Positions 2,327 to 23,690 of a DNA stretch of 23,690 nucleotides are shown piece by piece. Positions within the stretch are counted from its first letter, which is position 1; each line of letters starts with the position of its first letter. Below the pieces are notes generated by a model. The model saw only the letters and a program-made list of their open reading frames with translations. It had not been told where the DNA came from and did no database searches. The position numbers were made by a program, and so were the translations under genes. The stretch is from a virus: IMG/VR virus record IMGVR_UViG_3300042544_003919, positions 1 to 23,690 of that record. One strand, 5' to 3'.

Positions 2327-2452
2327 CTTGGTCTCCTTGCTGTGGCGCCGGGGTAATTCCCTGTGCCTGAGGGACCATTCGCGCTGTAACGAGGGGCGAG
2401 CCAAGCGAGATTGAGCGTAACTTCGTTGCTATGATTGGGGAGTTTCAATCAT
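2327..2452 (-). promoter_or_regulatory. Repeated leader element, copy 3, hairpin overlapping the methyltransferase stop codon
   Basis: This copy lies upstream of the gene starting at 2326. Shared blocks are TTCGCGCTGT (2378-2387), AGCCAAGCGA (2399-2408), GAGCGT (2413-2418) and GTTGCTATGAT (2425-2435). The inverted repeat ATGATTG (2431-2437) and CAATCAT (2446-2452), with an 8-nt loop, spans the TGA of the methyltransferase gene at 2449-2451. The loop and stem lengths equal those of copy 2 although two stem pairs differ, which supports a real structure. Confidence 0.6.
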
Positions 2453-5799: not shown

Positions 5800-6774
5800 A
5801 TGCTTAGTCGTCGATCCATTGTCGCTTTGCTGACGGGTACCTCTGCCCTTACCTCGCCGAGCTTTGCTCGCGCTCAAGGCTTTCCTAGTCGTCCAGTGCG
5901 CATCATTGCCCCTTACCCGCCAGGTGGAGGAATCGACACGGTCGCACGCCTGATCGCCGGTCCAATGTCTGAGTTTCTTGGGCAGTCAGTCGTGGTGGAG
6001 AACCGCGCTGGAGCCGGTGGTTCGATCGGTGCTGCCGCTGCCGCACAGGCTCAGCCCGATGGGCATACGCTTCTTCTCGATGCTTTGGGGCACGTGATCA
6101 ATCCGCTTTTGATCCGTGATTTATCCTTCGATTACGCTAGGGCCTTTGCCCCTGTTTCGTTGGTGGTGAGCCAACCGATCATTGTTGTTGGCAATCCAAA
6201 TCTGCCCATCCGCTCGCTCGCACAGCTGCTTGAGCGACTGAAGCAGCCCGGCGCAGATTTTTCATATGGCTCTTCAGGCAATGGAACAGGCCCTCACATC
6301 GCCGCTGAAAGTCTGCTTCGGCAAGCGGGCGTTCGCGCCACTCACGTGCCGTATCGCGGTGCTGCACCGGCGTTGCAGGACGTGATGTCTGGCAACCTAG
6401 CATTCGCTGTCGTGACTGCGGGTTCGACGGTTGCGCTTGCCCGTGAAGGAAAAGTCATACCCCTTGGCATACTGAGCCCGGAACGCATGGCATCTCTGCC
6501 AGATGTTCCCACAGCTAACGAAGGGGCGGTGCCAGGCTTTGTTTTCCAGGAGTGGAATGGTTTGTTTGTTCCGGCCGGTACTCCTGAAGGCGCTATAACG
6601 CGGCTTCATCAAGCGGCGCAGCACGCCGTAAACCAACAAGCAGTGCGTGACCGTCTTGCGACACTTGGTGCTGTGCCCGTGGGGTCATCCCCGAGCGCCT
6701 TTGCCAGCTTTCTATCCGCACAACGAGAGACTATTGCGCGGACGGTGGCCGCTGCGGGTATCACTGGAAGCTGA
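5800..6774 (+). CDS. TctC/Bug-family periplasmic solute-binding protein (324 aa)
   Basis: This is a tripartite tricarboxylate transporter substrate-binding protein of the Bug family, which binds small carboxylates or other solutes in the periplasm. It has an N-terminal export signal with a paired arginine (MLSRRSIVALLTGTSALTSP, likely cut after ARA near residue 25). The family hallmarks follow: FPSRPVRIIAPYPPGGGIDT, VVVENRAGAGGSIGA, the PDGHTLL motif, HVPYRGAAPALQDVMSGNL and GLFVPAGTP. Length is normal for the family. CGGGAG lies 9 nt before the ATG. No TctA or TctB permease gene is nearby, as is usual for orphan Bug proteins. It stands on the opposite strand inside the phage minus-strand gene series and looks less GC-biased than its neighbours, so I read it as inserted cargo. 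Confidence 0.93.
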   Translation: MLSRRSIVALLTGTSALTSPSFARAQGFPSRPVRIIAPYPPGGGIDTVARLIAGPMSEFLGQSVVVENRAGAGGSIGAAAAAQAQPDGHTLLLDALGHVINPLLIRDLSFDYARAFAPVSLVVSQPIIVVGNPNLPIRSLAQLLERLKQPGADFSYGSSGNGTGPHIAAESLLRQAGVRATHVPYRGAAPALQDVMSGNLAFAVVTAGSTVALAREGKVIPLGILSPERMASLPDVPTANEGAVPGFVFQEWNGLFVPAGTPEGAITRLHQAAQHAVNQQAVRDRLATLGAVPVGSSPSAFASFLSAQRETIARTVAAAGITGS

Positions 6775-10450: not shown

Positions 10451-12030
10451 ATGAACCTCACTGCGGTGATTTCGGTGTATTGGCCCGTGGGCCGGACTTG
10501 GATTGCGATGGGCCGGCGCAGATGCTGCTGTTGGGCCAGCGCCTCATCCACCGTCATGGGTGGCGGCAGATTGCCCGCACGACGTCGCCACCAGGACAGC
10601 GCCTTGTCGCGGGGAAATCCGGTGTGCTCGAAACACACCCATTCGCTGTGTTGGGTCAGGCCGCATTCGTAGGTGACGCGGAGCGACGCTGGCTTGCCGG
10701 GCTTTTCATGCCGCGCGTAGGCAATATCAGTGACATCGCACCAGGCCGCCTGGATCTGCGTCGACAGCAGCGCGTCAGACGCTGCCTTCGGCGCCACCTT
10801 CACCACCGGCGGCGGAAATTCATAGTCGCACTCGATGCAGTGCCGCACGCTCGCGTGGTTGATGGTTTTGCATTCTGGGCAGGTTTTGATCGGTGCCTTG
10901 CCGTCCTCGGCGGTTTCCTTCTTGCGGCCATCAACCGTGTCGATCGGGCCGTGCCGTGCTGTGTTGCCGGCGAAGTCCAGCACCAGGCAGTCATCCTTGC
11001 CCTCGGCAAGGCGCGTGCCGCGACCAACCATCTGAACATAGAGGCCGACGCTCTTGGTGGGGCGCAGTAGCGCGATCAGGTCTGTGCCCGGCGCATCAAA
11101 ACCGGTGGTGAGCACATTGGCGTTGGTGACGCAGCGCAGCCTTCCGGCCTTGAACGCGGTCAGGATGCCATCGCGTTCGGGGCCGGGCGTGTCGCCCGTG
11201 ACGGTCTCGGCTGAGATGCCATGCTCGCGGAGCGCGTCCCGCACATGCCGCGCATGGGCAACGCCGGAGCAGAATACCAGCCAGGATCCACGATCCGTGC
11301 CGTGCTCAACGATCTCGGCCACGGCGGCGCGTGTGACCTCATCGCGATCGACTGCGGCCTCAAGGTCCTTGGCGATGAATTCGCCGCCGCGCGTGCCCAC
11401 ACCACCGACATCAAGCTGGGTCGTGGTCTGCTTGGGAACCACCGGGCAGAGATAGCCTTGCTGGATCATCTCCAGCACCGGCACCTCATAGGCGATATCG
11501 GTGAAAAGCCGATCCTCGCCCTCGTGCAACAGGCCGCTATCCAGCCGGTAAGGTGTGGCGGTGAAGCCGACGACCTTGGTGAGGCCGGCGTTGATTTCCT
11601 TGAGCTGCGTGAGAAAGCGGCGATACATGCCGCTATCATTACGCCCGAGTAGATGGGCCTCATCAATTAGCACCAGATCGCAACGCTGCACCTTGTATGC
11701 GTGGCGGTGGATGGATTGAATGCCGGCAAAGAGGATCTGCGCGTGAATGTCCCGCCGCGACAGCCCGGCCGAATAGATACCGGCTGGCGCATCGGGCCAG
11801 GCGCGCAGCAGCGCCATGAAGTTTTGCTGGATTAGCTCCCTCTGATGCGTGACCATGAGGATGCGCGTCTCTGGCCACATGGCAATGGCGCGCTGCGTAA
11901 GGGCGGCGATGCAGAGGCTTTTACCTGTGCCTGTTGGGAGCACGACCAGCGGATTCCCGACTTGATGCTCAAAGTAATTGAAAACCTCATCGACTGCGCA
12001 AGACTGATATGGGCGAAGGGATAGGCTCAT
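10447..12030 (-). CDS. SF2 DEAH-type helicase with zinc ribbon (527 aa)
   Basis: An ATP-dependent DNA helicase of the UvrB/Res III class. Motifs in order: LRPYQ (Q-motif, 5-9), PTGTGKS (32-38), IDEAH (122-126), TATP (157-160), a second RecA domain with LTTGFDAPG (308-315) and QMVGRGTR (333-340). A four-cysteine zinc ribbon follows (C384, C387, C398, C401), then a C-terminal DUF-like domain of about 110 residues (SLRVTYECGLTQHSEWVCFE). This order is common in replication modules of alphaproteobacterial prophages, where the helicase is thought to act in origin opening or fork restart. ATGA overlap with the nuclease gene upstream suggests coupled synthesis. Confidence 0.92.
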   Translation of the reverse strand: MSLSLRPYQSCAVDEVFNYFEHQVGNPLVVLPTGTGKSLCIAALTQRAIAMWPETRILMVTHQRELIQQNFMALLRAWPDAPAGIYSAGLSRRDIHAQILFAGIQSIHRHAYKVQRCDLVLIDEAHLLGRNDSGMYRRFLTQLKEINAGLTKVVGFTATPYRLDSGLLHEGEDRLFTDIAYEVPVLEMIQQGYLCPVVPKQTTTQLDVGGVGTRGGEFIAKDLEAAVDRDEVTRAAVAEIVEHGTDRGSWLVFCSGVAHARHVRDALREHGISAETVTGDTPGPERDGILTAFKAGRLRCVTNANVLTTGFDAPGTDLIALLRPTKSVGLYVQMVGRGTRLAEGKDDCLVLDFAGNTARHGPIDTVDGRKKETAEDGKAPIKTCPECKTINHASVRHCIECDYEFPPPVVKVAPKAASDALLSTQIQAAWCDVTDIAYARHEKPGKPASLRVTYECGLTQHSEWVCFEHTGFPRDKALSWWRRRAGNLPPPMTVDEALAQQQHLRRPIAIQVRPTGQYTEITAVRFM

Positions 12031-13127
12031 GCCGCCACCCCCATCGTCAAGGCATCTGCCTTGCTGAGCCAGCGCCCGCCTCGCTCACAGCCGGTGCAGA
12101 TCAGTTCCGCGATATGCGGGCCCTTGCCGGGTCCCACGCGAAAGGTGGTGCTGCTGCAGGTCAGACAGGGACGGTGCGGGATCAGTTTCGGCGTTGGCGT
12201 ATCGGCAACGCCGTCGCGCCACTCTGTACCGTCGCGCAGCCGATAGCTTACCCAATCCTCACCCGCATCCTTCTGCTCGCCGGCGATGAAGTCCGGGATA
12301 AAGAGATGCGCGACGCAACCAGCCTCCTGGTCGCGCCTCCCAAGCTGATGGTTGTGCCGCGCGCAATGCCAGGCGCCGTCATTGGTGGGCGAGGCATGCA
12401 GGCAGGACCGGCAATGCCGCTCAGGCATCGCACCCTCGTGACAGGTGGCGTGATGCTCGCAGAAGCGGCATTGCCACCATGCGGGATCATCGCTGATGCG
12501 CGCAGGCGGTCGGTTCGCGGCAATGACCCGCTCAGCCTTGGCCATGATGCGCAATGCGGCCTCGGTGTCGTAATGCAGGCGTTCCTGATAGAGCTCGTCG
12601 GTGTTCTTGTTCACCGCGAGGTAAAAGGCGCGTTCCAACCCTGCCAGATGCATGTAGGTCTGCATTTGCGCCCAGTGCAGCGGCTTGGATTTGGCGACAC
12701 CCTCGCGCTTGAGTGCGAGGAAGGATTTTTCGCTATGGGTCTTGAATTCACAGACATGCCAGGTGCGAAGCGCTTCGGGTAAGCCGATCGCCACCGCATC
12801 CATGCTGCCGCCGAAATGGCCGCCCGTATCGCGTAGCTGCCATTGGCGCCCGGTGGCTGGATCGAGATCCAGCACCGTAACGCCGATACGGCGAAGGTCA
12901 GCGACAAAGCGTGCCTCCGCCAGATTGCCAGTATCGAACAACCGCAACAGCCGGCCCGTATGCTTCACGCGCGTAGTCCAGCGAAAGCCGTACCAGATGG
13001 CGCGCTCGCATTCGGTGCCGATCAGTGACGCGCCCAGATGTTCCCGAAAGCCGTGATCGGCCGCCGCCTCATAGGCGGTGTAGATGGCCGATACGGTGGG
13101 CGTTGGCGGGATTGGCAGGCTTACCAT
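12027..13127 (-). CDS. PD-(D/E)XK nuclease with Fe-S cysteine pattern and extra zinc-ribbon-like modules (366 aa)
   Basis: A RecB/Cas4/AddB-like exonuclease. Active-site residues visible are D110 (GGSMD), E127 and K129 (CEFKT) and Q154/Y158 (HWAQMQTYM). The four cysteines C40, C220, C223 and C229 (Cys far upstream, then CxxC and x5C) match the iron-sulfur staple of Cas4 and AddB. Beyond residue 230 are further Cys/His groups (HCRSC, WHCARH, GCVAH) and a late pair of CxxC motifs (PCLTC and ICTGC), likely zinc ribbons. The role is probably recombination or DNA-end processing together with the Sak4-like ATPase and DUF669. GGGAGGG precedes the ATG at 13127. Confidence 0.88.
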   Translation of the reverse strand: MVSLPIPPTPTVSAIYTAYEAAADHGFREHLGASLIGTECERAIWYGFRWTTRVKHTGRLLRLFDTGNLAEARFVADLRRIGVTVLDLDPATGRQWQLRDTGGHFGGSMDAVAIGLPEALRTWHVCEFKTHSEKSFLALKREGVAKSKPLHWAQMQTYMHLAGLERAFYLAVNKNTDELYQERLHYDTEAALRIMAKAERVIAANRPPARISDDPAWWQCRFCEHHATCHEGAMPERHCRSCLHASPTNDGAWHCARHNHQLGRRDQEAGCVAHLFIPDFIAGEQKDAGEDWVSYRLRDGTEWRDGVADTPTPKLIPHRPCLTCSSTTFRVGPGKGPHIAELICTGCERGGRWLSKADALTMGVAA

Positions 13128-13141
13128 GGCAACCCTCCCGA

Positions 13142-13672
13142 TCAGGCGCGCCGCCAGGGGGGCGTGCCGCCTGTGCCCGGGCGCGCAGCAGGCGGGGGCG
13201 TTGTCGCAGGGCGGGGCGTTGGCGCTGCTTGGCTCGGCGCAACACTGGTGCTCCCTGCTTTGGCGGCGGAATAGCCAGACACCTTGTTCCGCGCCTCGCG
13301 GTGCACGCCGTATTTGTCGGTACCGGCAGGCTCGACCTTCAGCGTCACGAACAGCGGTTTGAAGTGCAGCTGCTCGCTATCGCCGACATGCATCTGGCCC
13401 ACCGCGTGGCAGATGGCCGACAAGGTGCGCTGCGCGATCTCCACCGTCTGCTCGTTGCGGTTCACCAGGTTCAGCTGATCGAAGATCTTCCGACGCGCGG
13501 AGGGCCCTTCCAAGATCTCGAAGACCAGCTTCAGCAACTGCCCGTCGCCCGCCTTGGTCGGTGCCATTTCACTCTCGATAAGGTGCGCGAGGTATTTGCC
13601 GGGCGGCAGCACCTCGAGCGGAACGGCGGGGGCGACCTCGGTCGCATCAAAAGTACCATTGAGGGATGCCAT
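13142..13672 (-). CDS. DUF669 protein, probable phage ssDNA-binding protein (176 aa)
   Basis: The N-terminal half shows the DUF669 pattern: MASLNGTFDATEV, LPPGKYLAHLIESEM, QLLKLVFEILEGPSARRKIF and the DQLNLVNRNEQTVEIAQRTL stretch. The C-terminus is Ala/Pro/Thr-rich and low-complexity from about residue 135, as in many SSB tails, though it ends in WRRA and not in acidic residues. DUF669 genes commonly sit beside Sak4-type ATPases, and the family has been proposed to be a single-stranded DNA-binding protein; that role is taken from context. The start at 13672 begins the conserved domain; a longer open frame upstream overlaps the ATPase gene and looks non-coding. Confidence 0.85.
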   Translation of the reverse strand: MASLNGTFDATEVAPAVPLEVLPPGKYLAHLIESEMAPTKAGDGQLLKLVFEILEGPSARRKIFDQLNLVNRNEQTVEIAQRTLSAICHAVGQMHVGDSEQLHFKPLFVTLKVEPAGTDKYGVHREARNKVSGYSAAKAGSTSVAPSQAAPTPRPATTPPPAARPGTGGTPPWRRA

Positions 13673-13676
13673 GGGA

Positions 13677-14468
13677 TCAGTTCCCTGTGTCTTGGGTTGG
13701 GAGGACGGGGGTGCTTGGTGCTGCCGCGTAAAAGGGAATGCCGGCGGCCAGATCGGCCCAGGCGAGCGGCAGGGTTTCTTCAAGGCCAAAGCGGTTCTTG
13801 GCCAGGAAAGCAGGGCGTTCGATTGTGTGCAGCAGGCGATCACCACCGCTTACGCCGCGCACGACCTTCTTGTTAAAGCCGACGTCCGACTTCAGCGTGC
13901 TGACGCGATAATTCGCGAACAGCACGCCATCGACATGCTCCTGCACCAGCGCAGATGCGCTCCGATGCAGTTTCGGCTGATAACGGTCGTAGGGCTCGGT
14001 CTCCGGGCTATCAAAGCGGCGGATTTCCGCATGGGCGATCAGAAGAACGCCCATGCCGCATTCATCGCGCAGCGTATTCACCGCATCCAAAAAGGTGCGC
14101 CAGGTATCCAACGCGGCCTGATAGCCCTTGCCATAGCCGAAGGCTTCAATGTCGCGCTGATTGTGCTGCTGCGCCGTGTGCTGCCAGATCAGCGGTTCCA
14201 GCCAATCAAGGCTATCGATGACAAGCGTCTGGAATTCATGCGCTTCGGAATAAAGGGACCCAAGCGCTTCCATGACGGCGTCAAAGTTGCGCAGCAGCCC
14301 GAAGGTCGCGGCATCAATCCGCCCGAGGCCATCCTCGGTTTGCAGAAAGATCGGGTTCGGCGCATCTGCGGCAAGCTTCGTTTTGCCGACGCCAGCAACG
14401 CCATAGATCAGCAGGCGTGGGGGACGCGTATCGCCGCCCCGACGGAGTGATGCGAGGGAGATCGCCAT
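13677..14468 (-). CDS. Sak4-like phage AAA/RecA-fold ATPase (263 aa)
   Basis: A phage nucleotide-binding protein. Walker A is GVAGVGKT at 23-30, Walker B LVIDS at 82-86, and a sensor-like LLIAHAEIRRF follows near 165. The short RecA-like core with no large extra domains fits the Sak4 class of phage single-strand annealing or recombination ATPases. The adjacent DUF669 and PD-(D/E)XK nuclease complete a recombination set. The start at 14468 has a near-perfect AAGGAGG 7 nt upstream and overlaps the previous stop as TGATG. The frame continues upstream for 100 more codons, but those residues cover the neighbouring small genes and were excluded. Confidence 0.88.
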   Translation of the reverse strand: MAISLASLRRGGDTRPPRLLIYGVAGVGKTKLAADAPNPIFLQTEDGLGRIDAATFGLLRNFDAVMEALGSLYSEAHEFQTLVIDSLDWLEPLIWQHTAQQHNQRDIEAFGYGKGYQAALDTWRTFLDAVNTLRDECGMGVLLIAHAEIRRFDSPETEPYDRYQPKLHRSASALVQEHVDGVLFANYRVSTLKSDVGFNKKVVRGVSGGDRLLHTIERPAFLAKNRFGLEETLPLAWADLAAGIPFYAAAPSTPVLPTQDTGN

Positions 14469-14614
14469 CACGCAGCCTCCTTCGCTTCGAGGGCGTAGGA
14501 GGCCCGCAGCGTACCGACCTCTTCCAGCAGCAGCGCCAGATGATCGACAGGCAGGGGTGCGGCCTGCGCGGCGTCCATCTCGCGCAACTGCGCCAGTTGG
14601 GAGCGATTGCTCAT
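14468..14614 (-). CDS. Short protein upstream of the Sak4-like ATPase (48 aa)
   Basis: The product reads MSNRSQLAQLREMDAAQAAP, then PVDHLALLLEEVGTLRASYA, ending EAKEAA. The LP(V/I)DxLALLLEEVxxL pattern recalls the N-terminus of a longer phage protein usually encoded beside Sak4-like ATPases, so this may be a shortened version. AAGAGA lies 7 to 9 nt before the chosen ATG. A longer form from ATG 14704 (78 aa) overlaps the preceding stop as ATGA but has no ribosome site and a poorly protein-like first 30 residues. Its stop overlaps the ATPase start (TGATG). Confidence 0.6.
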   Translation of the reverse strand: MSNRSQLAQLREMDAAQAAPLPVDHLALLLEEVGTLRASYALEAKEAA

Positions 14615-14700
14615 TTGTGTCTCTTTGGAATGGGTGATGTCCGGCTCTGGCTTGCATGACGACGGCCGGACGGGCGTCGCCATTTTCATGGGGATGGGCG

Positions 14701-14829
14701 TCATGGCTGCACCAGCAGTTCCGCGATCCAGCAGAGCGCGATGAAACCGCCGGCAAAGACAGCGCCGATGGTGAAGTTGCGGAGCACACGGCCGATGCGG
14801 CGCAACCGGCGCATGGACCGCCGCGTCAT
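14701..14829 (-). CDS. Single-span membrane peptide (42 aa)
   Basis: The peptide starts with a basic segment (MTRRSMRRLRRIGRVLRN) and continues into one hydrophobic helix, residues 19-39 (FTIGAVFAGGFIALCWIAEL onward), ending QP. It is framed by ATGA overlaps on both sides: its start with the nuclease gene stop, and its stop with an ATG at 14704. Arginines before the helix suggest an N-in orientation. Small membrane peptides in phage early operons can act in superinfection exclusion or host takeover; there is no direct evidence for either here. Confidence 0.6.
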   Translation of the reverse strand: MTRRSMRRLRRIGRVLRNFTIGAVFAGGFIALCWIAELLVQP

Positions 14830-15176
14830 GACTTCACCTGCGGTGGCGGCAGCCCGCGTCCAATCAGTTCCAGCCAGACATGCAAGGGCACCACCACCAG
14901 CGGTGCGGCACGGTCGCGCCAGAGAAACAAGGCATCATGCGTGCCAAGCCAGCGCTCCAGCGTCTTGAAGCCCTCGCCATCTCCGCGGGCTTTGACCTCA
15001 GCCACCAACGGCGGTTCGGCCACGCCGCGGGCATAGATGTCGATATCGGCGCCATTGCCGCGATATCGCGTGGCACCCGATAGCGGCACACGCTCGGCGG
15101 CGATGCCGCTTTGTTTGTGAAGTTCCACCAGCGCGCGTTCGCGCCGCAGGCCCTTATCGCGAGATGCTTTACCCAT
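14826..15176 (-). CDS. Holliday-junction-resolvase-like PD-(D/E)XK nuclease (116 aa)
   Basis: A compact nuclease resembling archaeal-type Hjr resolvases. A Lys/Arg-rich first helix holds E13 (GLRRERALVEL), and the core shows D44/D46 (GADIDIY) and E60-x-K62 (LVAEVKAR), the expected order E, D, ExK. The length also fits Hjr. The probable job is resolving branched phage DNA during recombination or replication. The ATG at 15176 has GAGGTG 8 nt upstream; an alternative GTG at 15188 would overlap the upstream stop as GTGA and add four residues. The end overlaps the membrane-peptide start as ATGA. Confidence 0.82.
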   Translation of the reverse strand: MGKASRDKGLRRERALVELHKQSGIAAERVPLSGATRYRGNGADIDIYARGVAEPPLVAEVKARGDGEGFKTLERWLGTHDALFLWRDRAAPLVVVPLHVWLELIGRGLPPPQVKS

Positions 15177-15184
15177 GTCGCACC

Positions 15185-15547
15185 TCACGCGGCCTGCGGC
15201 AGCGATGACGCCGCCTGGGGGGAGGGGGGGGCCTGCAGGATCAAACGGGCGCTGCCCTGACTCGGCCGGGGACGCGCAATGGCGAGATAAAGGTAGTCAT
15301 CCCGCCCGAGGCGTTGCTGGACGAGATGCACCAAGCCCATCTCAGCCATGTGCAGCGTCAAGTTCTTCAGGCCACGCAGGTGGCGGCGCTCACTGTCGCC
15401 CAGCGGGCTCGCGGTCACAGATAGCTCAATGGCCAGATGCCCGCGCCAATAGGCGATGCGGTCACCGGGGCTCGCCGCCAGGAACCAAGCGAGCATTTCA
15501 GGCTCGCCGATCTGAGGCCGCAGCAGGGAAGGGGCACGGGTCAGCAT
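15185..15547 (-). CDS. Phage early protein of unknown function (about 120 aa)
   Basis: I know no name for this family. The core (WFLAASPGDRIAYWRGHLAI and the RHLRGLKNLTLHMAEMGLVH helix-loop-helix, followed by LVQQRLGRDDYLYLAIARP) looks like a conserved winged-helix-like domain. The final 20 residues are Pro/Ala/Ser-rich and disordered. It starts GTG-ATG; ATG 15547 is chosen, overlapping the upstream TGA as TGATG. It lies between an AlpA-like regulator and the resolvase-like nuclease, second block of the early operon, and may be a regulator. Confidence 0.7.
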   Translation of the reverse strand: MLTRAPSLLRPQIGEPEMLAWFLAASPGDRIAYWRGHLAIELSVTASPLGDSERRHLRGLKNLTLHMAEMGLVHLVQQRLGRDDYLYLAIARPRPSQGSARLILQAPPSPQAASSLPQAA

Positions 15548-15753
15548 CACTGCGCCCCCGCCGCTGCCGGCTGGTGCACCGCGTCACGCTCGTAAGCCTC
15601 GATATCTTCCAGCCGATAGAGAACCCTGCCGCCGATCTTTAGGTATCGCGGCCCTTGGTTGAGCCAGCGCCAGCGTTCCAGGGTGCGGGGGCTGACATTC
15701 CAGCGCCGCGCCAAGTGGATCTGGTTGAGGTGATTCGTAGGACTATTGTTCAT
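15547..15753 (-). CDS. AlpA/MerR-like excisionase-type DNA-binding protein (68 aa)
   Basis: A small winged-HTH protein. The pattern LARRWNVSPRTLERWRWLNQ, then GPRYLKIGGRVLYRLEDIEAYE, is the standard layout of AlpA/Xis-like HTH_17 proteins: a recognition helix, the GPxYxKxGxRVxYR wing and a helix with DIEAYE. It may act as the directionality factor for the serine recombinase or as a transcription factor of the early operon. It is translated in an ATGA overlap with the 76-aa gene before it. Confidence 0.88.
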   Translation of the reverse strand: MNNSPTNHLNQIHLARRWNVSPRTLERWRWLNQGPRYLKIGGRVLYRLEDIEAYERDAVHQPAAAGAQ

Positions 15754-15980
15754 GGGAATTTCGTCCTTTTTCCCGACGCTTGGCGGTCCTGCCTCACCTT
15801 TTCCATGAAGGCGCAGACCCGGTCTGCGGTCAGAAGGCTCGGCGATCGCCCTTTGCGTAAATGCCTAACAAAATTGGGATCCCCCATAGATTCTCGGCCA
15901 AAATCAGTGGCTTTCATCCGGGTGGCTTCCAGGAAGTCTTCAACTTCCGTGATGAACTGATCGCTGAATCGGGTCGTCAT
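15750..15980 (-). CDS. Cro-like small regulator, first gene of the early operon (76 aa)
   Basis: The sequence begins MTTRFSDQFITEVEDFLEAT and contains a short HTH-like region (KATDFGRESMGDPNFVRHLR, then GRSPSLLTADRVCAFMEKVR). The GDPxFVxxLRxGRxPxxxTxxRVxxFM pattern is frequent in small phage proteins that face the repressor gene. Position and size suggest a Cro-type counterpart of the S24 repressor transcribed divergently at 16070; this is inference. No good ribosome site precedes the ATG at 15980, so the transcript may be nearly leaderless or the gene may be weakly translated. Confidence 0.7.
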   Translation of the reverse strand: MTTRFSDQFITEVEDFLEATRMKATDFGRESMGDPNFVRHLRKGRSPSLLTADRVCAFMEKVRQDRQASGKRTKFP

Positions 15981-16069
15981 GAGGGCTAGGATTGACAGCC
16001 CAATTTACATGCGTCAATTAATTAAAATAGGCTATTACCTATCAATGGCAGATCAAGGAGTTAGGCACC
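15981..16069. promoter_or_regulatory. Divergent promoter/operator region between Cro-like and S24 repressor genes
   Basis: This 89-bp AT-rich gap separates the two divergent regulators. Inverted repeats are GGGCT/AGCCC (15983-15987 and 15997-16001), ATAGG/CCTAT (16027-16031 and 16038-16042, 6-nt spacer) and the palindrome AATTAATT near 16016-16023. On the minus strand TTGATA (16045-16040) and ATTAAT (16022-16017) are 17 nt apart, a possible early promoter overlapping the ATAGG/CCTAT operator. The repressor ribosome site AAGGAG lies about 10 nt before its ATG. Confidence 0.5.
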
Positions 16070-16786
16070 ATGGACCTCGATCCAACGCGTCTCAGGGTCA
16101 TGAAATTGATCCAGCAAAGGCGCACGGACCTGAAAAAAGCCTCGCTCGCGATCGGGCGAAACGCCGCCTATTTGCAGCAGTATCTCTATCGCGGGATTCC
16201 AAAGACGCTGCCTGAAGATGCGCGCGAAGCGCTTGCGGCGTTTCTTGAGGTGCCGGACGAAAGTCTGCGTCCCGCAAGGAAAGAATCGGCAAGCGAGGCA
16301 ACGCTGCCCGCCTTGCCATCAGCAGTTACAGCCGCTCCGCCACTTGCGTTGGCTGCGGCGGTGCCTGGATTTGCTCAGGTGCCGGAATTGGATGTGCGTG
16401 CCTCGGCAGGGCATGGCGCGTTTCACGAGGGTGACGAGGAAATAAAGGCAGTCTGGATGTTTCCTGATGCCGTAATTCGCCATGAATTGCGTGCACGATC
16501 TGCCAATCTCAGGATCATCACCATTGATGGGGATTCGATGGAGCCGCTTTTGGCCTCGGGCGATCGGGTACTGGTGGATACCGCACAGCGTGTGCCGGCG
16601 CCGCCAGGCATTTTCGTGATCTGGGACGGTCTTGGGATTGTGGCCAAGCGCATCGAGCACATCCCAACGGCGGAGCCATCACGCGTCGTGATCAAATCGG
16701 TCAATCCGCTTTACGGCGATTACGAGCGCCCGACAGAGGATGTGAATATCATCGGCCGCGTTATCTGGGCGGGGAAGAAGCTATGA
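16070..16786 (+). CDS. S24-family (LexA/CI-like) phage repressor (238 aa)
   Basis: A lysogeny repressor. The N-terminal 60 residues form a short HTH domain (LIQQRRTDLKKASLAIGRNA, with AYLQQYLYRGIPKTLP). An Ala/Pro linker (75-105) leads to the S24 peptidase domain: probable self-cleavage site A113-G114 (ASAGHG), catalytic S156 (GDSMEP) and K193 (GIVAKR). All residues needed for RecA-stimulated self-cleavage are present, so the element should respond to DNA damage. The gene is divergent from the Cro-like gene, and its stop overlaps the SUMF1 gene as ATGA, so repressor, SUMF1 protein and nuclease are likely one mRNA. Confidence 0.93.
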   Translation: MDLDPTRLRVMKLIQQRRTDLKKASLAIGRNAAYLQQYLYRGIPKTLPEDAREALAAFLEVPDESLRPARKESASEATLPALPSAVTAAPPLALAAAVPGFAQVPELDVRASAGHGAFHEGDEEIKAVWMFPDAVIRHELRARSANLRIITIDGDSMEPLLASGDRVLVDTAQRVPAPPGIFVIWDGLGIVAKRIEHIPTAEPSRVVIKSVNPLYGDYERPTEDVNIIGRVIWAGKKL

Positions 16787-17535
16787 CCATGCGCATGCTT
16801 GGGAAGACGCTGCTGGTTGCCCTTGGCTTACTCTCCGCCCCGGCTGCGCACGCCAATGGCGACATGCAGCCCATTGGCCGCTTTGCCATTGACCGGACCG
16901 AGGTTTCGGTCGGCGCATTTCGGCGCTTTGTCGCCGCTACGGGCATGGTCACCATGGCTGAGCGCCAGGGCGGTGGCTCCGTGTTTGAGGCGGGCTGGGT
17001 GCGCAAGCCTGGTTGGACCTGGAGCACGCCTTTTGGCGAGCCCGCTGATGAGCGCGAGCCAGCTGTACACATCACCTTCGACGAAGCCCATGCCTATTGT
17101 CGTTGGGCAGGCAAGCGCCTGCCGACCGATGCGGAGTGGCTGGAGGCCGCGCATACGGAGCGGCGCGCATCACCGTCCGCACCATTCCAGACCGGCGTGA
17201 CTTATCCCTATCCCACCGGCGAACGCCCGACCGGGGCGAATTGCCTGCGCGATTGCGGTCCAACACCTTTTGCCTTGGATCGCTCTGCGCGGCTCAACCG
17301 AGGCACTGGCCCTGCGCGCGTTGGCACCTCCCAGGCAGGGGTGAATGGCCTCTACGACATGGGGGCGAATGCTTGGGAATGGGTGGATACCGCGCTTGGC
17401 AGCGAGCGCATCACCCGCGGTGGTTCCTGGTGGTATGGCGCCTCGCAGATGCATCGCGACCACCGGGCCAGTAAGCCCCCGTCAACTGCGGTGGTTTATA
17501 TTGGCTTTCGTTGTGCGCAGGATCGAGGTTCCTGA
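16783..17535 (+). CDS. Exported SUMF1/FGE-fold protein (250 aa)
   Basis: The protein has a signal peptide (residues 1-25, hydrophobic LLVALGLLSAPAAHA, likely cut before NG) and a formylglycine-generating-enzyme-like domain. The hallmarks are IDRTEVSVGAFRRFVAATG (36-54), FDEAHAYCRWAGKRLPTDAE (99-118), GVNGLYDMGANAWEWV (186-201), RGGSW (212-216) and GFRC (241-244). The cysteine pair that binds copper in true FGE (after RGGSF in the family) is absent: the segment reads WWYGASQMHRDHRAS. Formylglycine formation is therefore unlikely, and a binding or structural role of the C-type-lectin-like fold is more plausible. Its start overlaps the repressor stop (ATGA); the nuclease gene follows after 4 nt. 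Confidence 0.9.
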   Translation: MTMRMLGKTLLVALGLLSAPAAHANGDMQPIGRFAIDRTEVSVGAFRRFVAATGMVTMAERQGGGSVFEAGWVRKPGWTWSTPFGEPADEREPAVHITFDEAHAYCRWAGKRLPTDAEWLEAAHTERRASPSAPFQTGVTYPYPTGERPTGANCLRDCGPTPFALDRSARLNRGTGPARVGTSQAGVNGLYDMGANAWEWVDTALGSERITRGGSWWYGASQMHRDHRASKPPSTAVVYIGFRCAQDRGS

Positions 17536-17539
17536 TCAG

Positions 17540-18040
17540 ATGAAATTGCTGTCCCGCCTTTCCCTGGCGCTGCTGGTTCTCGGCATTGCTGCGTCGCCCG
17601 CTCTGGCCAAGCGTATCGATCCCATCCTACTGCAAGGCGAGGCGCGCGCGGTTGATGGCGATACGCTGCAAGTCGGTGATACGCGGCTACGCCTGCATGG
17701 CATCGACGCGCCGGAGCTTCGTCAGACATGCGAGGATGAGACTGGCGAAGCTTGGGCCTGCGGGCGCCGCGCTGCATCCGAATTGGCGGCGGCGGTAGCC
17801 GGAGGTGAAATTCACTGCATCAGCCGCGAACGTGATCGTTATCAGCGCCTTGTTGCGACATGCTGGTCGCAGGGGCTGGATATCGGGCAATCACTTGTCT
17901 CGCATGGTTGGGCTGTCGCCTACCGCCGCTATTCGGTGGATTATGTGCGCGACGAGGATATCGCGCGCTACCTGACTCAAGGGATGTGGGCGGGACGATT
18001 CGAGATGCCCTGGGAATGGCGACAGGCGCGGCGGCGGTAG
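17540..18040 (+). CDS. Exported staphylococcal-type thermonuclease (166 aa)
   Basis: A secreted or periplasmic Ca-dependent nuclease of the SNase family. The signal peptide is MKLLSRLSLALLVLGIAASP with a probable cut after ALA at 23. The catalytic residues can be matched: D41 (VDGDT), R51, D56 and E59 (RLHGIDAPE) and R103 (DRYQRLVAT), the equivalents of D21, R35, D40, E43 and R87 of the staphylococcal enzyme. Cysteines at 64, 74, 93 and 108 could form disulfides in the periplasm. It follows the SUMF1 gene by 4 nt, with GAGG before the ATG, so it is expressed with the repressor. The role may be destroying DNA outside the cytoplasm. Confidence 0.93.
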   Translation: MKLLSRLSLALLVLGIAASPALAKRIDPILLQGEARAVDGDTLQVGDTRLRLHGIDAPELRQTCEDETGEAWACGRRAASELAAAVAGGEIHCISRERDRYQRLVATCWSQGLDIGQSLVSHGWAVAYRRYSVDYVRDEDIARYLTQGMWAGRFEMPWEWRQARRR

Positions 18041-18208
18041 TAGCAGCGCCATCTCCAGCCTTAGCGATTTTTCGCATTGATACCTTCTTTATCCTGTTGA
18101 TTCTCAACCGCCGAATTTTCTGTTTTCTGTCGTCGGAACTACGACCATGTTCGGTCCGCGAAAGGGCGTCCGAGTATCGCCCGCTGTTTCTAATTGCGGA
18201 AGGTCATC

Positions 18209-18430
18209 ATGCACGACGCTCTCTCCGGCCCCAATCCCCTCCCTGCCGAGTGCCTCTCGGCCCAGGAACGTCTGGATGAAGTCGCCTGCATCCTTGCAGG
18301 TGGCCTCAGGCGAATTCAGGCCCAGGAGGCAAGTTCTTTATCTGCCAAAAACGGAGAAAGTTCATTCGACATTCTCGCCCTCAAACGCCGTGTTGGTCGT
18401 CGTAAACCAAACACCCGCGTCGGAGAATGA
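18209..18430 (+). CDS. Small conserved protein of the DUF2924-recombinase cassette (73 aa)
   Basis: The product begins MHDALSGPNPLPAECLSAQE and continues RLDEVACILAGGLRRIQAQE. The pattern LSxxERLDEVAxILAxGLxRLxAR is common in short proteins encoded directly before DUF2924 genes in alphaproteobacteria. The function is unknown. GGAAGG precedes the ATG at 18209 (a TTG at 18194 would add five residues), and its TGA overlaps the DUF2924 start as ATGA. The 168 bp upstream of it (18041-18208) hold a T-rich stretch and an imperfect repeat GTCGT/ACGAC near 18129-18145, and probably the cassette promoter. Confidence 0.8.
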   Translation: MHDALSGPNPLPAECLSAQERLDEVACILAGGLRRIQAQEASSLSAKNGESSFDILALKRRVGRRKPNTRVGE

Positions 18431-18939
18431 TGATGGCAGTACTGAAGAGAAAACCTGAAGCAGAACCCTATCGGCAGTATCCCGGCACCAGCGACGCCAG
18501 CGTCGTCGCACAGCTGGCAGCGCTACAGAAAATGAGTGTGGTCGAGCTCAAGCAAAGATGGGAAATACTCTTTGGCTTGCCGGCGCCGAACAATAGCCGC
18601 AGCTACCTCGAACTACGGCTCGGCTACCGAATCCAGGAGCTGACGCTCGGCGGCCTGTCGCGCGAGACACGGCGAATGCTCGATCTCCTCGCCAATGAAA
18701 TCGACGGGAAGCTTGGCCGAAAAGCGATCATCGCAGACAGCCGCAACCCCGTCGTAGGCACGCGGCTGCTGCGCGAATGGAATGGCGTTGAGCATACCGT
18801 CACCGTTCTGCGGGATGTCTTCGACTGGCAGGGCCGCAGCTTCAAGTCGCTGTCCGCCGTCGCGCGGGCAATCACCGGTACGCAATGGAATGGCTACCGC
18901 TTCTTCGGGCTTCGTGAGGCCGGGAGGGATCCCCGATGA
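18427..18939 (+). CDS. DUF2924 protein (170 aa)
   Basis: The DUF2924 pattern is clear: VVAQLAALQKMSVVELKQRW near residue 25, LFGLPAPNNSRSYLELRLGY, the RIQELTLGGLS block, and the C-terminal TRLLREWNGVEHTVTVLRDV followed by FDWQGRSFKSLSAVARAITG and NGYRFFGL. The last part resembles a short DNA-binding domain shared with related recombinase-associated proteins. The role is not established, but the gene is nearly always linked to a serine recombinase in alphaproteobacteria. The start is one of three tandem ATGs (18427, 18430, 18433); the first overlaps the upstream stop. The end overlaps the recombinase ATG. Confidence 0.92.
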   Translation: MMMAVLKRKPEAEPYRQYPGTSDASVVAQLAALQKMSVVELKQRWEILFGLPAPNNSRSYLELRLGYRIQELTLGGLSRETRRMLDLLANEIDGKLGRKAIIADSRNPVVGTRLLREWNGVEHTVTVLRDVFDWQGRSFKSLSAVARAITGTQWNGYRFFGLREAGRDPR

Positions 18940-20273
18940 ACCGCGCGCCAACCACCGTCCTTCCCATGTCACGCCGTCAGCGCTGCGCGATCTACACGCG
19001 CAAGTCGAGCGAGGAAGGGCTAGACATGGAATTCAACTCGCTCGATGCACAGCGCGAGGCATGTGAAGCCTATGTCGCCAGCCAACGCGCCGAAGGATGG
19101 GCCGCGATCCGAGAGCCCTATGACGATGGCGGCGTTTCTGGCGGCACGCTTGATCGACCTGCGCTGAAACGCCTTCTGGCCGACGTCGAAGCAGGTCTGA
19201 TCGACGTGATCGTCGTCTATAAGATCGACCGACTATCGCGATCCCTCATGGATTTTGCCCGTTTGGTCGAGATCTTGGAGCGGCACCAGGTGACCTTTGT
19301 CTCGGTGACTCAGTCGTTCAACACGACCACCAGCATGGGTCGGCTAACGCTAAACATCCTGCTGTCCTTCGCGCAGTTCGAGCGCGAGGTGATCGGGGAG
19401 CGTATCCGTGACAAGGTGGCAGCATCCCGCAAGCGCGGCATATGGATGGGCGGCTATGTGCCGCTGGGCTACGACGTGCGTGACCGCAAGCTCATGGTCA
19501 ACCAGAATGAAGCTGCCACAGTCAGGATGATCTTCCAGCGCTTCGCTGCGATCGGCTCCGCGACCATGCTGGCCAAGGCGCTGGCGTCCGAAGGTGTGTT
19601 GAACAAGCGCGGGAAGGTGGTCGACAAGGGGTTTCTTTACAAGCTCATCAACAACCGGGTCTATCTCGGCGAAGCCGTTCACAAAGGAACGGCCTATCCC
19701 GGCGAGCACGCGGCGATCATTGATCAGGCTCTCTGGGACAACGTGCACGCTATCCTACAGGAGAGCCCGCGGCTCCGGGCCAATAACACGCGAGCCCAGA
19801 CGCCGGCCTTGCTCAAGGGGATCATCTTCTCGGAGACCGGCACAGCGATGACGCCGACCGCGACCAAGAAAGGCTCTCGTCTCTATCGCTACTACGTGTC
19901 GATGGATCTGATCAGGAGCCGCGCTATCGGCGAAAGCGCGGGACCGCTGCGTTTGCCAGCTGGTATGGTAGAGGACGCCGTCATCGGCGAGATCCGGCGC
20001 ATGATCCGCGCGCCAGAGATTGCAGCCCGCGTGATCAAGGCGCCGCGGGACGTGAGCGCTGCGGTGGATGAGAAGGCGGTCATCAAGGCGCTAGGCGAAT
20101 TCGACCAGATCTGGACCGCGCTCTATCCGGCGGAGCAGACCCGCATCATCCAGCTCCTGGTCGATAGGGTCACCGTGGGGGCGAGCGGCATCGCGGTCGA
20201 CCTGCGCCAGGAAGGGCTGGGATCTGTGCTGCGCGACATGATGGCGCCCCGCCAGAAGGAGGCCTGCGCATGA
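18936..20273 (+). CDS. Large serine recombinase, probable integrase (445 aa)
   Basis: A site-specific recombinase of the resolvase/invertase superfamily. The catalytic N-terminal domain shows Y20, R22 and nucleophile S24 (IYTRKSS), then DVIVVYKIDRLSRSLMDFA and SFAQFEREVIGERIRDK. The recombinase domain spans about 155-270 (GYVPLGYDV, FLYKLINNRVYLGEAVHKGT). The zinc-ribbon position near residue 290 has lost its cysteines (KGIIFSETGTAMTPT then RLYRYYVS), as I remember for this alphaproteobacterial subfamily, and a C-terminal LYPAEQTRIIQLLVDRV helix ends the protein. It is the likely integrase. An ATGA overlap joins it to DUF2924 upstream and to the HTH gene downstream. Confidence 0.93.
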   Translation: MNRAPTTVLPMSRRQRCAIYTRKSSEEGLDMEFNSLDAQREACEAYVASQRAEGWAAIREPYDDGGVSGGTLDRPALKRLLADVEAGLIDVIVVYKIDRLSRSLMDFARLVEILERHQVTFVSVTQSFNTTTSMGRLTLNILLSFAQFEREVIGERIRDKVAASRKRGIWMGGYVPLGYDVRDRKLMVNQNEAATVRMIFQRFAAIGSATMLAKALASEGVLNKRGKVVDKGFLYKLINNRVYLGEAVHKGTAYPGEHAAIIDQALWDNVHAILQESPRLRANNTRAQTPALLKGIIFSETGTAMTPTATKKGSRLYRYYVSMDLIRSRAIGESAGPLRLPAGMVEDAVIGEIRRMIRAPEIAARVIKAPRDVSAAVDEKAVIKALGEFDQIWTALYPAEQTRIIQLLVDRVTVGASGIAVDLRQEGLGSVLRDMMAPRQKEACA

Positions 20274-20653
20274 ACGGTTCGTCCGACACCATCCGGGTCG
20301 TCATTCCGCTGAGCATCCGCAAGCGCAACGGGCGGCCGAAGATCCTGCCACCTGAGGACCACTGCGTGAGGGAAGGCCGGACGCAGGATCCGCACGTGCT
20401 CCGTGCCATCGCTCGGGCATGGAAGTGGCGGCGACAGCTGGAGAGCGGCGCCGTCTCCACCATTCAGGACATCGCTGTGGCGGAGAACGTCTCCGACCGC
20501 TTCATCGGGCGGATGATCCGGCTTGCTTATTTGGCCCCGAACGTCCTGGAGGCGCTGGTCATTGCCCGGCGACCGCCGGCGATAGCGATCAATGACCTGA
20601 TGACCGTGGTTGAGTTGCCGTGGGATGGGCAGATGCAGCGGGTGTTTGGGTAA
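20270..20653 (+). CDS. ParB-like HTH protein linked to the recombinase (127 aa)
   Basis: A small DNA-binding protein that commonly follows this recombinase type. Residues 40-75 (HVLRAIARAWKWRRQLESGA) lead to an HTH in the order STIQDIAVAENVSDRFIGRM with recognition helix IRLAYLAPNVLEALVIARRP and the ending INDLMTVVELPWD. This resembles the central HTH of ParB/RepB. It might help the recombinase choose or orient its sites. It starts in an ATGA overlap with the recombinase. After its TAA come 116 bp of convergent spacer (20654-20769) with no gene; an attachment site could lie there, but none can be recognised from one end. Confidence 0.8.
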   Translation: MNGSSDTIRVVIPLSIRKRNGRPKILPPEDHCVREGRTQDPHVLRAIARAWKWRRQLESGAVSTIQDIAVAENVSDRFIGRMIRLAYLAPNVLEALVIARRPPAIAINDLMTVVELPWDGQMQRVFG

Positions 20654-20769
20654 GCAGGTCCGCACCGTTGGTTCTTGAGATAGCAAGATTATCGGTGGGG
20701 AGCGGTTGCGGCTACCAAGCGCATTTGTTGGCAGGAATAGGCCATCCCATAAATCCTATCGCTTCAGAC

Positions 20770-23690
20770 CTATGAAAGTGGATGAGCGACGTGTCCGCCG
20801 GTTGGCGTATTAGCCATCCAATCCATTACTGAGCGCACACAACCATCGGGATCATCACGCACCTGGCTCCCCCAAAAACGACGAACGTGCCAACCTAGCT
20901 CGATAAGGCGCTGGTTCCTGATAAGATCGTGGCGCACCCTTTCACCATCCCAGTGGTACAAGCGACCATCTACTTCGATGTCGAGTTTCCGATCACCATC
21001 GAAGATGGCAAGATCGAGGTGGTAGGCCCCAACAGGAAATTGCGGATACGGTTTGATGCCTGCTTTATACAGCGCCAAATATAGAAGCCGTTCCTCGTCT
21101 GAGACAGGCTTTGCGCCGCGTGGGAGAGACGGATAGTTCGGGCCAAAATCTCGGGTTACCTCGACAGCGGACATGGATGGCTGTTGAAGCGCGTCTACGT
21201 GCCGTACAAAGGCTTCAAGATAAGAGACACCGGACCGAGACGCTGCGACCTTGTCTCCAACAACAATCAATGCGGCGCGCGCGCGAGTGACGGCAACGTT
21301 GAATAGGTTTCCGTTCCCGCGAAGGAAGGCGAGCGCGCCCTCCGTCATCCCAGGTCCGCAAACAAGCGAGAAGAGCATGGTATCCCGCTCATTACCTTGA
21401 AAACTGTGCACTACGTCTACCATCAGATCAGCGTTTGCAGCTCGCGCAGTAATTTCCGGTTCAGTTTCAATCAACTCCTGCAGAAGTCTTTTTTGTGCGC
21501 GGAACGGTGTAACGACACCCACGGTGCCACCGTAATTTCTGTCTACGAGCAGGTCCCGGAGCGCAGCAACTGTAGCCCTGGCCGTTTCGTTTTGCAGGGC
21601 GCCGCCATTTAACGGTCGCGTCACCGGGCCAGAGGCATCTCGCCACGAGATGATCTTATCAGTTCTGGGCGGCACACGTAGCCGATCATACCGCGTCGCG
21701 ACGCGCAGCTTACCCTCGTAAAAATGCTGGTTCGAAAAATCGATGATATCTGCGTGTGATCGATGGTGATCCTTCAAGACCACGACATGCTCCGCTCCAA
21801 CTAGCGTGGCAGCGAGGTTGAACAGCGAGGACTGGGTGAAGGACCAGTAAGCCGAGTCCTCCGCCAAACCAAAGCGCTGCAGTAGCCGTTGGTCTTCAGC
21901 GGTTGAAAGCGTCGTGATGTGTGGAAGCTGCATAGGATCGCCGAGAATGACAGCTCGCTTCGCACGGTAGAGGAGTGGAAGCGTTGAGCCGATATCGCAT
22001 TGGCTCGCCTCGTCAATCACGACCAGGTCGAAGACGCCAGCCTCATAGGGAATACGCCCCTTCGCGGATAGCGCAGTCACCGCCCAGCAGGGTATGAGGC
22101 TTCGTAGGCTTTTTAACATTCCAATCCAGTCTATCTTTCGGCTTGCCTGCTCCGATCCCCCGCTCAGCTGCATCTTCAGGGTACTAGCAAAATTCGAAAC
22201 TGCCTTTCGCTCGTCAGCAGCCATCCTGGCCGCTCTCTCCGATAGAGACAGTCGCCAAAGGGCGCCGGCAATATCGGTTTTCTGAGCGCCGACCCTATTC
22301 AAAATTAGCGCTATGTCGGCATCCGATGTGCCGGTCTTTAGCCGTTCTGCGGCTTCTACATACTCAGCGACCTTTGGGAGTAACGCCACCCGTTCCCGAA
22401 GCCTATCTAAAGTCCCGGCAAGGCTTATTTCATTGTCAAGTGATAGACCGTGGGCGATGGTGTGCTGGGCGACAGAGGACCGCGCTTCTAGGAACGCAAC
22501 TTGCCGGCCTTTCCGGATAAGCGGCCAGATTAGCTTCAAGAAAATACTGTGTTGCCACCGATCGCAACGCCGCACTTGTTTATCAAGCTCTTCGACAAGG
22601 TCGCGCGACATTGTCGCTTCAACGGCAAGACGTCGCAGACGAGCCTCTCCAAGAGCTTGCTTAAGTGGGGCAATGTCGTCTTCAAGTTCTGCAATTCTAT
22701 TTCGTAATTTGACAACATCGTCCAGTTGCTTGTTGGCCTGTTCCGCTTGTACCGCGAGGGCCGCATACTGCTTCCGGAATACCTCAAGCTGCGTCGCTTG
22801 CAGCAGATCTGTGCCAGACGCGAGCAATCGCCCTAGTTGTTCAGCAAGTTTGGTAATGAACTCGTTGCGGTTCGCGATGCGCACCATCACGGGGCGATCG
22901 GCGAGCCCGTTGACGCGCTCTTCCACAACATCGACAGCCCGATTGTTGTGGCTTGAAAAAAGGACTGTCTGTCCGTTCCAGACCGCATTTGCGATCAAAC
23001 TTGTGACAACCTGGGATTTACCCGTTCCAGGGGGGCCAGTTATCACCGTAAGTGGCTCGGTGAGCCCCTTTTGAACAGCGTCTCGCTGCTCCGCATTCAG
23101 AGAAACTACTTCAATAAGACCGTGCGGAGTTTGCCCCCGCTGCTGGTGCGCCCCATCGACCCATCCGCCTAGCGCAGTTCCAGCCAAGCTCTCCTGCCGT
23201 TGACGCCCAAGTGCTTCCAATTCGTTCTCGAGGCCGGCCGTGAATTTTTTTTGTTTAACTAGAAAAACTGCGGCTCGATTCAGAATACCCTCGGCTGTTG
23301 GCGACGTAAGCGGATTACCTGTGCTGAGAACGAATGGATCGATACGCTCGACCCAAGGCCAGTCGGGCCGCACATTAGGAAGCCGGAACAGGACGTCCTC
23401 CAGATCCGGCAGATCTGTCGCATCCGCCCTTAGCCCGAGCGCACTCGAGATCTCGACACCCTCGGCAACCGCGGCTGACGGGCCACCTGGCGCAAAGTGG
23501 GCCAAAAGACTGTGGTTGAAAGAAATGCGCCCGACAGGTGCATCGGTACCATCCGGTGAATAAGGCAACAGGAGGAGAGGCTCGAGCATCCAGAAGGTGT
23601 TGCCCTTCTTGCTCATGAGCTGTCGCGCGAAGATGGGATAGCCGATATATAAGTCTTGCTCTTTTGATTTCGCAGCCTTGCTGACAAGTC
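20770..23690 (-). CDS. SF1 (UPF1/Dna2-like) helicase with C-terminal Vsr/DUF559-like nuclease; 5' end outside the window
   Basis: The frame is open to the right edge and the residues before the ATG at 23616 read as protein (KAAKSKEQDLYIGYPIFARQ), so the start lies outside; at least 972 residues are visible. Numbered from that ATG: GPPGTGKS (194-201), a long coiled-coil insertion with WPLIRKG (about 275-480), VVIDEASQ (532-539), GDPMQLP (559-565), HSFQGNERD (737-745), NVAVTRAR (773-780), then a nuclease domain with D868 (YHLDLAI), E881 and D883 (DIEVDG), H888, and RRFWGSQV. That is a helicase joined to a small Vsr-fold endonuclease, a plan known from bacterial defence proteins. It lies convergent to the integrase cassette. 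A defence role is inference. Confidence 0.9.
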   Translation of the reverse strand, partial: LVSKAAKSKEQDLYIGYPIFARQLMSKKGNTFWMLEPLLLLPYSPDGTDAPVGRISFNHSLLAHFAPGGPSAAVAEGVEISSALGLRADATDLPDLEDVLFRLPNVRPDWPWVERIDPFVLSTGNPLTSPTAEGILNRAAVFLVKQKKFTAGLENELEALGRQRQESLAGTALGGWVDGAHQQRGQTPHGLIEVVSLNAEQRDAVQKGLTEPLTVITGPPGTGKSQVVTSLIANAVWNGQTVLFSSHNNRAVDVVEERVNGLADRPVMVRIANRNEFITKLAEQLGRLLASGTDLLQATQLEVFRKQYAALAVQAEQANKQLDDVVKLRNRIAELEDDIAPLKQALGEARLRRLAVEATMSRDLVEELDKQVRRCDRWQHSIFLKLIWPLIRKGRQVAFLEARSSVAQHTIAHGLSLDNEISLAGTLDRLRERVALLPKVAEYVEAAERLKTGTSDADIALILNRVGAQKTDIAGALWRLSLSERAARMAADERKAVSNFASTLKMQLSGGSEQASRKIDWIGMLKSLRSLIPCWAVTALSAKGRIPYEAGVFDLVVIDEASQCDIGSTLPLLYRAKRAVILGDPMQLPHITTLSTAEDQRLLQRFGLAEDSAYWSFTQSSLFNLAATLVGAEHVVVLKDHHRSHADIIDFSNQHFYEGKLRVATRYDRLRVPPRTDKIISWRDASGPVTRPLNGGALQNETARATVAALRDLLVDRNYGGTVGVVTPFRAQKRLLQELIETEPEITARAANADLMVDVVHSFQGNERDTMLFSLVCGPGMTEGALAFLRGNGNLFNVAVTRARAALIVVGDKVAASRSGVSYLEAFVRHVDALQQPSMSAVEVTRDFGPNYPSLPRGAKPVSDEERLLYLALYKAGIKPYPQFPVGAYHLDLAIFDGDRKLDIEVDGRLYHWDGERVRHDLIRNQRLIELGWHVRRFWGSQVRDDPDGCVRSVMDWMANTPTGGHVAHPLS

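What the first reader, a model, noticed from the sequence alone, without database searches (positions are those of the whole stretch)
20770..23690. Large helicase-nuclease beside the integrase as a candidate defence gene
A UPF1-like SF1 helicase with a long coiled-coil insertion and a C-terminal Vsr/DUF559-type nuclease stands convergent to the serine recombinase cassette, the usual place for prophage or island cargo. Helicase-Vsr fusions are known among antiphage proteins. The lack of its N-terminus in this window leaves open whether partner domains or genes exist.
Basis: partly seen in the sequence, partly recalled or inferred. Interest (0 to 1): 0.6.

Follow-up and report, generated by a model that had tools for sequence, protein, structure and literature searches.

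The report
Helicase-nuclease in a prophage defence hotspot
A large helicase fused to a DNA/RNA-cutting domain is carried inside a bacterial virus, in a slot beside its integrase where related viruses carry known anti-virus systems, so it is very probably a defence gene that the dormant virus supplies to its host.

Summary
Window 20770-23688 (-) is an intact UPF1-like SF1 helicase with a helical insertion and a C-terminal Vsr/MTES_1575 nuclease, cut at its N-terminus by the window edge. A second viral contig (L002, 99.98% identical DNA) supplies the rest: 1103 aa, no partner gene, and tRNA-Ser(GCT) 625 bp upstream.

Comparing 24 contigs with related recombinases shows where it sits. Downstream of the recombinase and its 127-aa companion comes variable cargo (0.1-6 kb). 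Then a conserved ~230-bp element end follows, which in 13 loci abuts the 3' CCA of a tRNA-Ser gene of any isoacceptor. The helicase is therefore prophage cargo in a hotspot, not a host gene. In the same slot siblings carry Gabija, a CBASS cyclase plus phospholipase, a DrmD-like helicase, ABC-3C/PDC-M68, PDC-S36, or nothing. A separate helicase-Vsr lineage sits at the matching place in a sister element.

By tree (100/100) the protein groups with the helicase-Vsr subunit (CnuH) of operons matching type III-B CoCoNuTs. It stands alone, without CnuA-D, and its first 260 residues are unrelated. It is a CnuH-like solo variant, not a CoCoNuT. Defence function is inferred and was not tested.

The parts
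20770..23690 (-). helicase-Vsr gene, C-terminal 972 of 1103 codons; the N-terminal 131 codons lie beyond the window (L002:724-1116)
   Evidence: ORF open at window edge; L002 is 100% identical in protein and completes it
23014..23037 (-). Walker A GPPGTGKS (residues 349-356 of the full protein)
22132..22812 (-). helical insertion with coiled-coil-like heptads between Walker A and Walker B (about residues 424-650)
   Evidence: 341 residues separate Walker A and B, against 163 in an IGHMBP2-like helicase; helices in the model, low pLDDT
22000..22014 (-). Walker B DEASQ (residues 690-694)
20824..21090 (-). Vsr-like PD-(D/E)xK nuclease domain (residues 998-1086), motif IEVDGRLYH with E1036 and D1038
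   Evidence: model order of elements H-E-E-E-H-E-H
18427..18939 (+). DUF2924 gene, first gene of the recombinase cassette
   Evidence: Pfam E 6e-48
18936..20273 (+). serine recombinase (Resolvase + Recombinase domains), the integrase of the element
20270..20653 (+). 127-aa companion gene of the recombinase (phrog_14161); the cargo slot begins after it
20654..23690 (.). cargo slot of the prophage; continues to the conserved element end at L002:99-330, which abuts tRNA-Ser(GCT) at L002:6-98

Best explanation
It is a single-gene anti-phage cargo of a temperate phage. The prophage integrates at the 3' end of a tRNA-Ser gene, most likely by its serine recombinase. Between the recombinase cassette and that attachment end it carries an exchangeable defence gene, here a solo relative of the CnuH helicase-nuclease. 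Proposed mechanism (inferred): the UPF1-like motor loads on an invader's single-stranded nucleic acid and translocates with ATP; the helical insertion couples the motor to the C-terminal Vsr-like nuclease, which cuts the invading RNA or DNA; the 260-residue N-terminal region, unlike that of CnuH, would supply recognition. Shown: the gene's structure, intact motifs, location inside the element, the company it keeps, and its kinship. Inferred: defence activity, substrate, and the trigger.
For: Complete 1103-aa gene, identical in two metagenome records; the shared 12.9 kb of phage DNA is 99.98% identical. 24 recombinase loci end in the same ~230-bp element end; 11 of them built the model and 13 were found independently. 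13 loci abut tRNA-Ser genes of four isoacceptors, so the conserved sequence belongs to the element and not to the host. Empty slots in L037 and L039. Cargo of siblings: GajA/GajB, CD-NTase plus phospholipase, DrmD, PDC-M68B, PDC-S36. A second helicase-Vsr lineage at the same position in sister element L097. Foreign composition: GC3 0.57 against 0.63-0.83 for all other prophage genes measured but one. Kinship with CnuH of type III-B-like operons, in one rhizobial plasmid beside Shedu and restriction genes. Structure search ranks RNA/ssDNA helicases Senataxin, IGHMBP2 and UPF1 among the best.
Against: No phage challenge exists. All copies seen are of one phage lineage. PADLOC and NCBIfam defence models match only in part and far below the NCBIfam cut-offs. 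No sigma-70-like promoter was recognised upstream. Some cargo in the same slot is not recognisably defensive: a ribonucleotide reductase, a methyltransferase, unknown proteins. The model is poor outside the core (mean pLDDT 54).
Confidence: 0.75

Rival explanations
1. A lone remnant of a type III-B CoCoNuT operon that lost its GTPase and coiled-coil partners and no longer works by itself.
For: Its nearest kin are CnuH proteins of five-gene operons, and none of the partners is present here.
Against: The frame is full length with every helicase and nuclease motif intact. The region upstream of residue 261 is unrelated to CnuH, which suggests an independent architecture rather than a fresh deletion. 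The gene fills the slot between the recombinase cassette and the element end.
Confidence: 0.12
2. A phage replication, recombination or exclusion factor that serves the phage and is not defence cargo.
For: It lies in a phage genome, and helicase-nuclease pairs do serve phage recombination.
Against: Sibling phages lack it and carry other genes, or nothing, in its place. The phage has its own primase, DEAD helicase, Cas4-type exonuclease, SSB-like protein and Sak4 annealase. Its codon composition is foreign. Exclusion of competing phages is not ruled out and would itself be defence.
Confidence: 0.1
3. A core host gene beside the prophage.
For: It is convergent to the recombinase and was at the edge of the record.
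Against: The element end lies beyond it and is conserved at tRNA-Ser genes of different isoacceptors. No close relative was found in 84,980 genomes.
Confidence: 0.03

Closest known systems
CnuH of type III-B CoCoNuT systems (PMC11090510); examples read here: L004, L005, L096
   Same: UPF1-like SF1 helicase, helical insertion after Walker A (Walker A to B 341 against 282-288 residues), Vsr-like nuclease fused at the C-terminus; 33-39% identity over best segments; one clade in the tree, 100/100
   Different: Stands alone, without CnuA, CnuB, CnuC and CnuD; residues 1-260 have no detectable relation to CnuH
Hhe and ProA (NF042953, NF058533), large helicase-Vsr anti-phage proteins
   Same: SF1 helicase followed by a Vsr-like nuclease; the last ~430 residues align
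   Different: Models of about 1,800-1,900 positions with further regions; scores 132 and 184 bits against cut-offs of 2000 and 1500; related DUF3320 proteins fall in a different clade
Mokosh MkoA/MkoC
   Same: SF1 helicase core matches (E about 1e-51)
   Different: The match covers the helicase only; the nuclease here is Vsr-like (Mokosh type II has a PLD nuclease, from general knowledge)
PDC-S37 (PADLOC candidate)
   Same: Helicase core plus Vsr region, profile 916-1336 of 1550
   Different: Most of the profile is not covered

Membership tests
CoCoNuT type III-B | UPF1-like SF1 helicase (CnuH) | tested here: met
CoCoNuT type III-B | Vsr-like nuclease fused to the helicase, no separate CnuE | tested here: met
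CoCoNuT type III-B | large helical/coiled-coil insertion after Walker A | tested here: met
   341 residues between Walker A and B, helical in the model though with low confidence
CoCoNuT type III-B | N-terminal wHTH domain of CnuH | tested here: inconclusive
   profile comparison aligns only from residue 261 on; the N-terminus has no Pfam match and no confident model
CoCoNuT type III-B | operon with CnuA, McrB-like CnuB (NxD motif), DUF2357 CnuC and CnuD | tested here: not met
   upstream only tRNA-Ser and the element end, downstream the convergent recombinase cassette
Hhe / ProA | full-length match above the NCBIfam cut-off | tested here: not met
   132 against 2000 bits and 184 against 1500 bits
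Mokosh (MkoA/MkoC) | full-length profile match including the nuclease region | tested here: not met
   only the helicase part matches
cargo of the tRNA-Ser / serine-recombinase prophage hotspot (described here) | lies between the 127-aa companion gene and the conserved element end next to tRNA-Ser | tested here: met

The most novel reading that the evidence does not exclude
A widespread, undescribed family of serine-recombinase/DUF2924 prophages inserts at the 3' end of any tRNA-Ser gene and keeps a dedicated slot for interchangeable defence systems between integrase and attachment end. In that slot a CnuH-like helicase-Vsr has become a self-sufficient one-protein restriction factor, possibly against RNA, with its own recognition region.
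Probability: 0.4. Interest if true: 0.65.

Novelty: new variant of a known kind. Interest (0 to 1): 0.52.

Why it matters
It adds a solo form to a helicase-nuclease family known so far from multi-gene CoCoNuT operons, small enough to test as one gene. It also gives a reproducible place to find new defence genes: the slot between this recombinase cassette and tRNA-Ser. It supplies a probable integration site for a common class of serine-recombinase prophages; a survey of Paracoccus prophages found no site for its largest cluster, 11 of 15 serine recombinases (PMC6536676), though that those belong to the family studied here was not checked.

Tried and rejected
A structured RNA in the element end: one sequence folds slightly better than shuffles (z -2.5), but the consensus has only 12 pairs with little covariation and Rfam finds only the tRNA above its gathering score; the invariant GAGAC/GTCTC boxes look more like DNA binding sites. 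A first tree with long rows was unstable and was rebuilt without them. The far end of the element was sought in Shinella: a CCTCCGCCA repeat with a similar flank exists, but chance copies of that 9-mer occur, so it is not claimed. Paper searches for this hotspot found no description of it. A further viral scan with a CnuH query found no more solos.

Full report
Observation. The window is a linear viral record of 23,690 bases. On its right edge a 972-codon open frame runs leftwards from 23688 to 20770. Pfam recognises AAA_11 and AAA_12, the two halves of a UPF1-like SF1 helicase, and a C-terminal MTES_1575/DUF559 (Vsr-like) nuclease. Solved-structure searches rank Senataxin-, UPF1-, SEN1- and SMUBP-2-type helicases first by sequence and by fold. 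The motifs GPPGTGKS, DEASQ, QGNERD, NVAVTRA and IEVDGRLYH are intact. The gene is convergent to a DUF2924 / serine recombinase / 127-aa gene cassette.

The missing part. A second viral contig, L002 (from another metagenome), carries the same protein at 100% identity and matches window 10773-23690 at 99.98%. There the gene is complete: L002:724-4035, 1103 aa from an ATG. Upstream lie only 625 bp and a tRNA-Ser(GCT) at L002:6-98. The gene therefore has no operon partner.

Where it lies. Related recombinases were fetched from 80 viral contigs, plus two large replicons of Paracoccus versutus and Shinella. In 13 distinct loci, L002 included, a tRNA-Ser gene of one of four isoacceptors (gct, gga, cga, tga) lies downstream of the recombinase, always in the same orientation. 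Directly after its CCA begins a conserved stretch of about 230 bp. A profile of 11 such ends finds the same end in 13 further loci, each once and each downstream of the recombinase and its companion gene. Sequence shared next to different tRNA genes of different hosts must belong to the element. In seven loci the end abuts other DNA that shares only about the last 8 bases, CTCCGCCA, with the tRNA end; what follows there in L016, L029 and L030 is another mobile element (restriction genes, a tyrosine integrase), consistent with tandem insertion at the same site. L021 is an exception without that core. The helicase of the window lies between the companion gene and this element end, so it is inside the prophage.

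What else uses this place. The interval between companion gene and element end is 104-107 bp in L037 and L039 (empty) and up to 6 kb elsewhere. Its contents include Gabija genes in L031 (GajA E 9e-73, GajB 8e-47), an oligonucleotide cyclase and phospholipase effector of a CBASS type in L080 (5e-116, 2e-160), DrmD in L092 (9e-295), a PDC-M68B/ABC-3C set in L024 (5e-50) and an HNH-NACHT protein in L027 (partial matches). The 278-aa NOV_C protein of L029 and L050 is a full-length match to the candidate family PDC-S36 (5e-129), and close copies are in L030, L069 (interrupted by a transposase) and L073. About nine of 24 loci thus hold near full-length matches to known or candidate defence families. 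Other contents are not recognised as defence: a ribonucleotide reductase in L053, a methyltransferase in L074, a 216-aa protein in L012 and L016. No statistical enrichment was computed. In a sister element (L097) with a related recombinase, a companion gene 34% identical (E 7e-13) is followed, in the same convergent arrangement, by another helicase-Vsr from a different clade. The two genes therefore came to this position independently.

Kinship. Tblastn against plasmids finds full-range relatives only in rhizobia, 32-39% identical. There the gene is the first of five: helicase-Vsr, coiled-coil protein, coiled-coil plus McrB-like AAA with an NxD motif (TMNED), DUF2357 protein and a further large protein, beside Shedu and restriction genes in one case. 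A viral contig (L096) holds the same five genes near a tyrosine integrase. This matches the published description of type III-B CoCoNuT systems: CnuH with a fused Vsr, then CnuA, CnuB, CnuC and CnuD (PMC11090510). A tree of the core and nuclease places the window protein with these CnuH proteins, support 100/100, apart from DUF3320 proteins and from the lineage of L097. The clade is a split in an unrooted tree of 16 rows. The first 260 residues show no relation to CnuH. The window protein is thus a CnuH-like solo variant and not a CoCoNuT system, since the operon that defines one is absent.

Mechanism. Shown: an intact motor and an intact nuclease motif, a long helical insertion, a foreign composition (GC3 0.57 against 0.63-0.83 for the other prophage genes measured save the TctC gene at 0.53) and the location in a slot rich in defence genes. 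Inferred: that it restricts competing phages or plasmids by translocating on single-stranded RNA or DNA and cutting it. CoCoNuTs are predicted to act on RNA (PMC11090510), but PD-(D/E)xK nucleases such as Vsr generally cut DNA, so the substrate is open. A prophage that carries such a gene would protect its host, and itself, from rivals.

Limits. The copies seen belong to one phage lineage. The host is not identified; relatives of the element lie in Alphaproteobacteria. The predicted model is confident only in parts of the core and the nuclease. Literature searches cover open-access papers only.

Noticed in passing
L002:6-330 and the ends of 23 related loci: The serine recombinase family appears to integrate at the 3' end of tRNA-Ser genes of four isoacceptors; the integration site of many serine-recombinase prophages was unknown in a Paracoccus survey (PMC6536676).
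   Followed up: partly
L002:180-240 (alignment A5): The element end holds invariant GAGAC, GTCTC and GTCTC boxes spaced some 15-25 bp apart, likely binding sites of the recombinase or its companion protein.
   Followed up: partly
L096:6104-16220: A five-gene operon matching type III-B CoCoNuT lies near a tyrosine integrase and a primase-like gene in a viral contig, so this system travels on mobile elements.
   Followed up: partly
window 5800-6774: A TctC (tripartite tricarboxylate transporter receptor) gene sits among phage early genes, with the lowest GC3 (0.53) of the genes measured.
   Followed up: no
window 16783-18040: An FGE-sulfatase-domain gene and a staphylococcal-nuclease-like gene lie between the repressor and the recombinase cassette.
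   Followed up: no
window 2449-5140: Two overlapping ParB-nuclease/DNA-methyltransferase fusion genes stand in tandem.
   Followed up: no
L053:8170-11088: A ribonucleotide reductase large subunit (recognised by eye) occupies the cargo slot of one related element.
   Followed up: no
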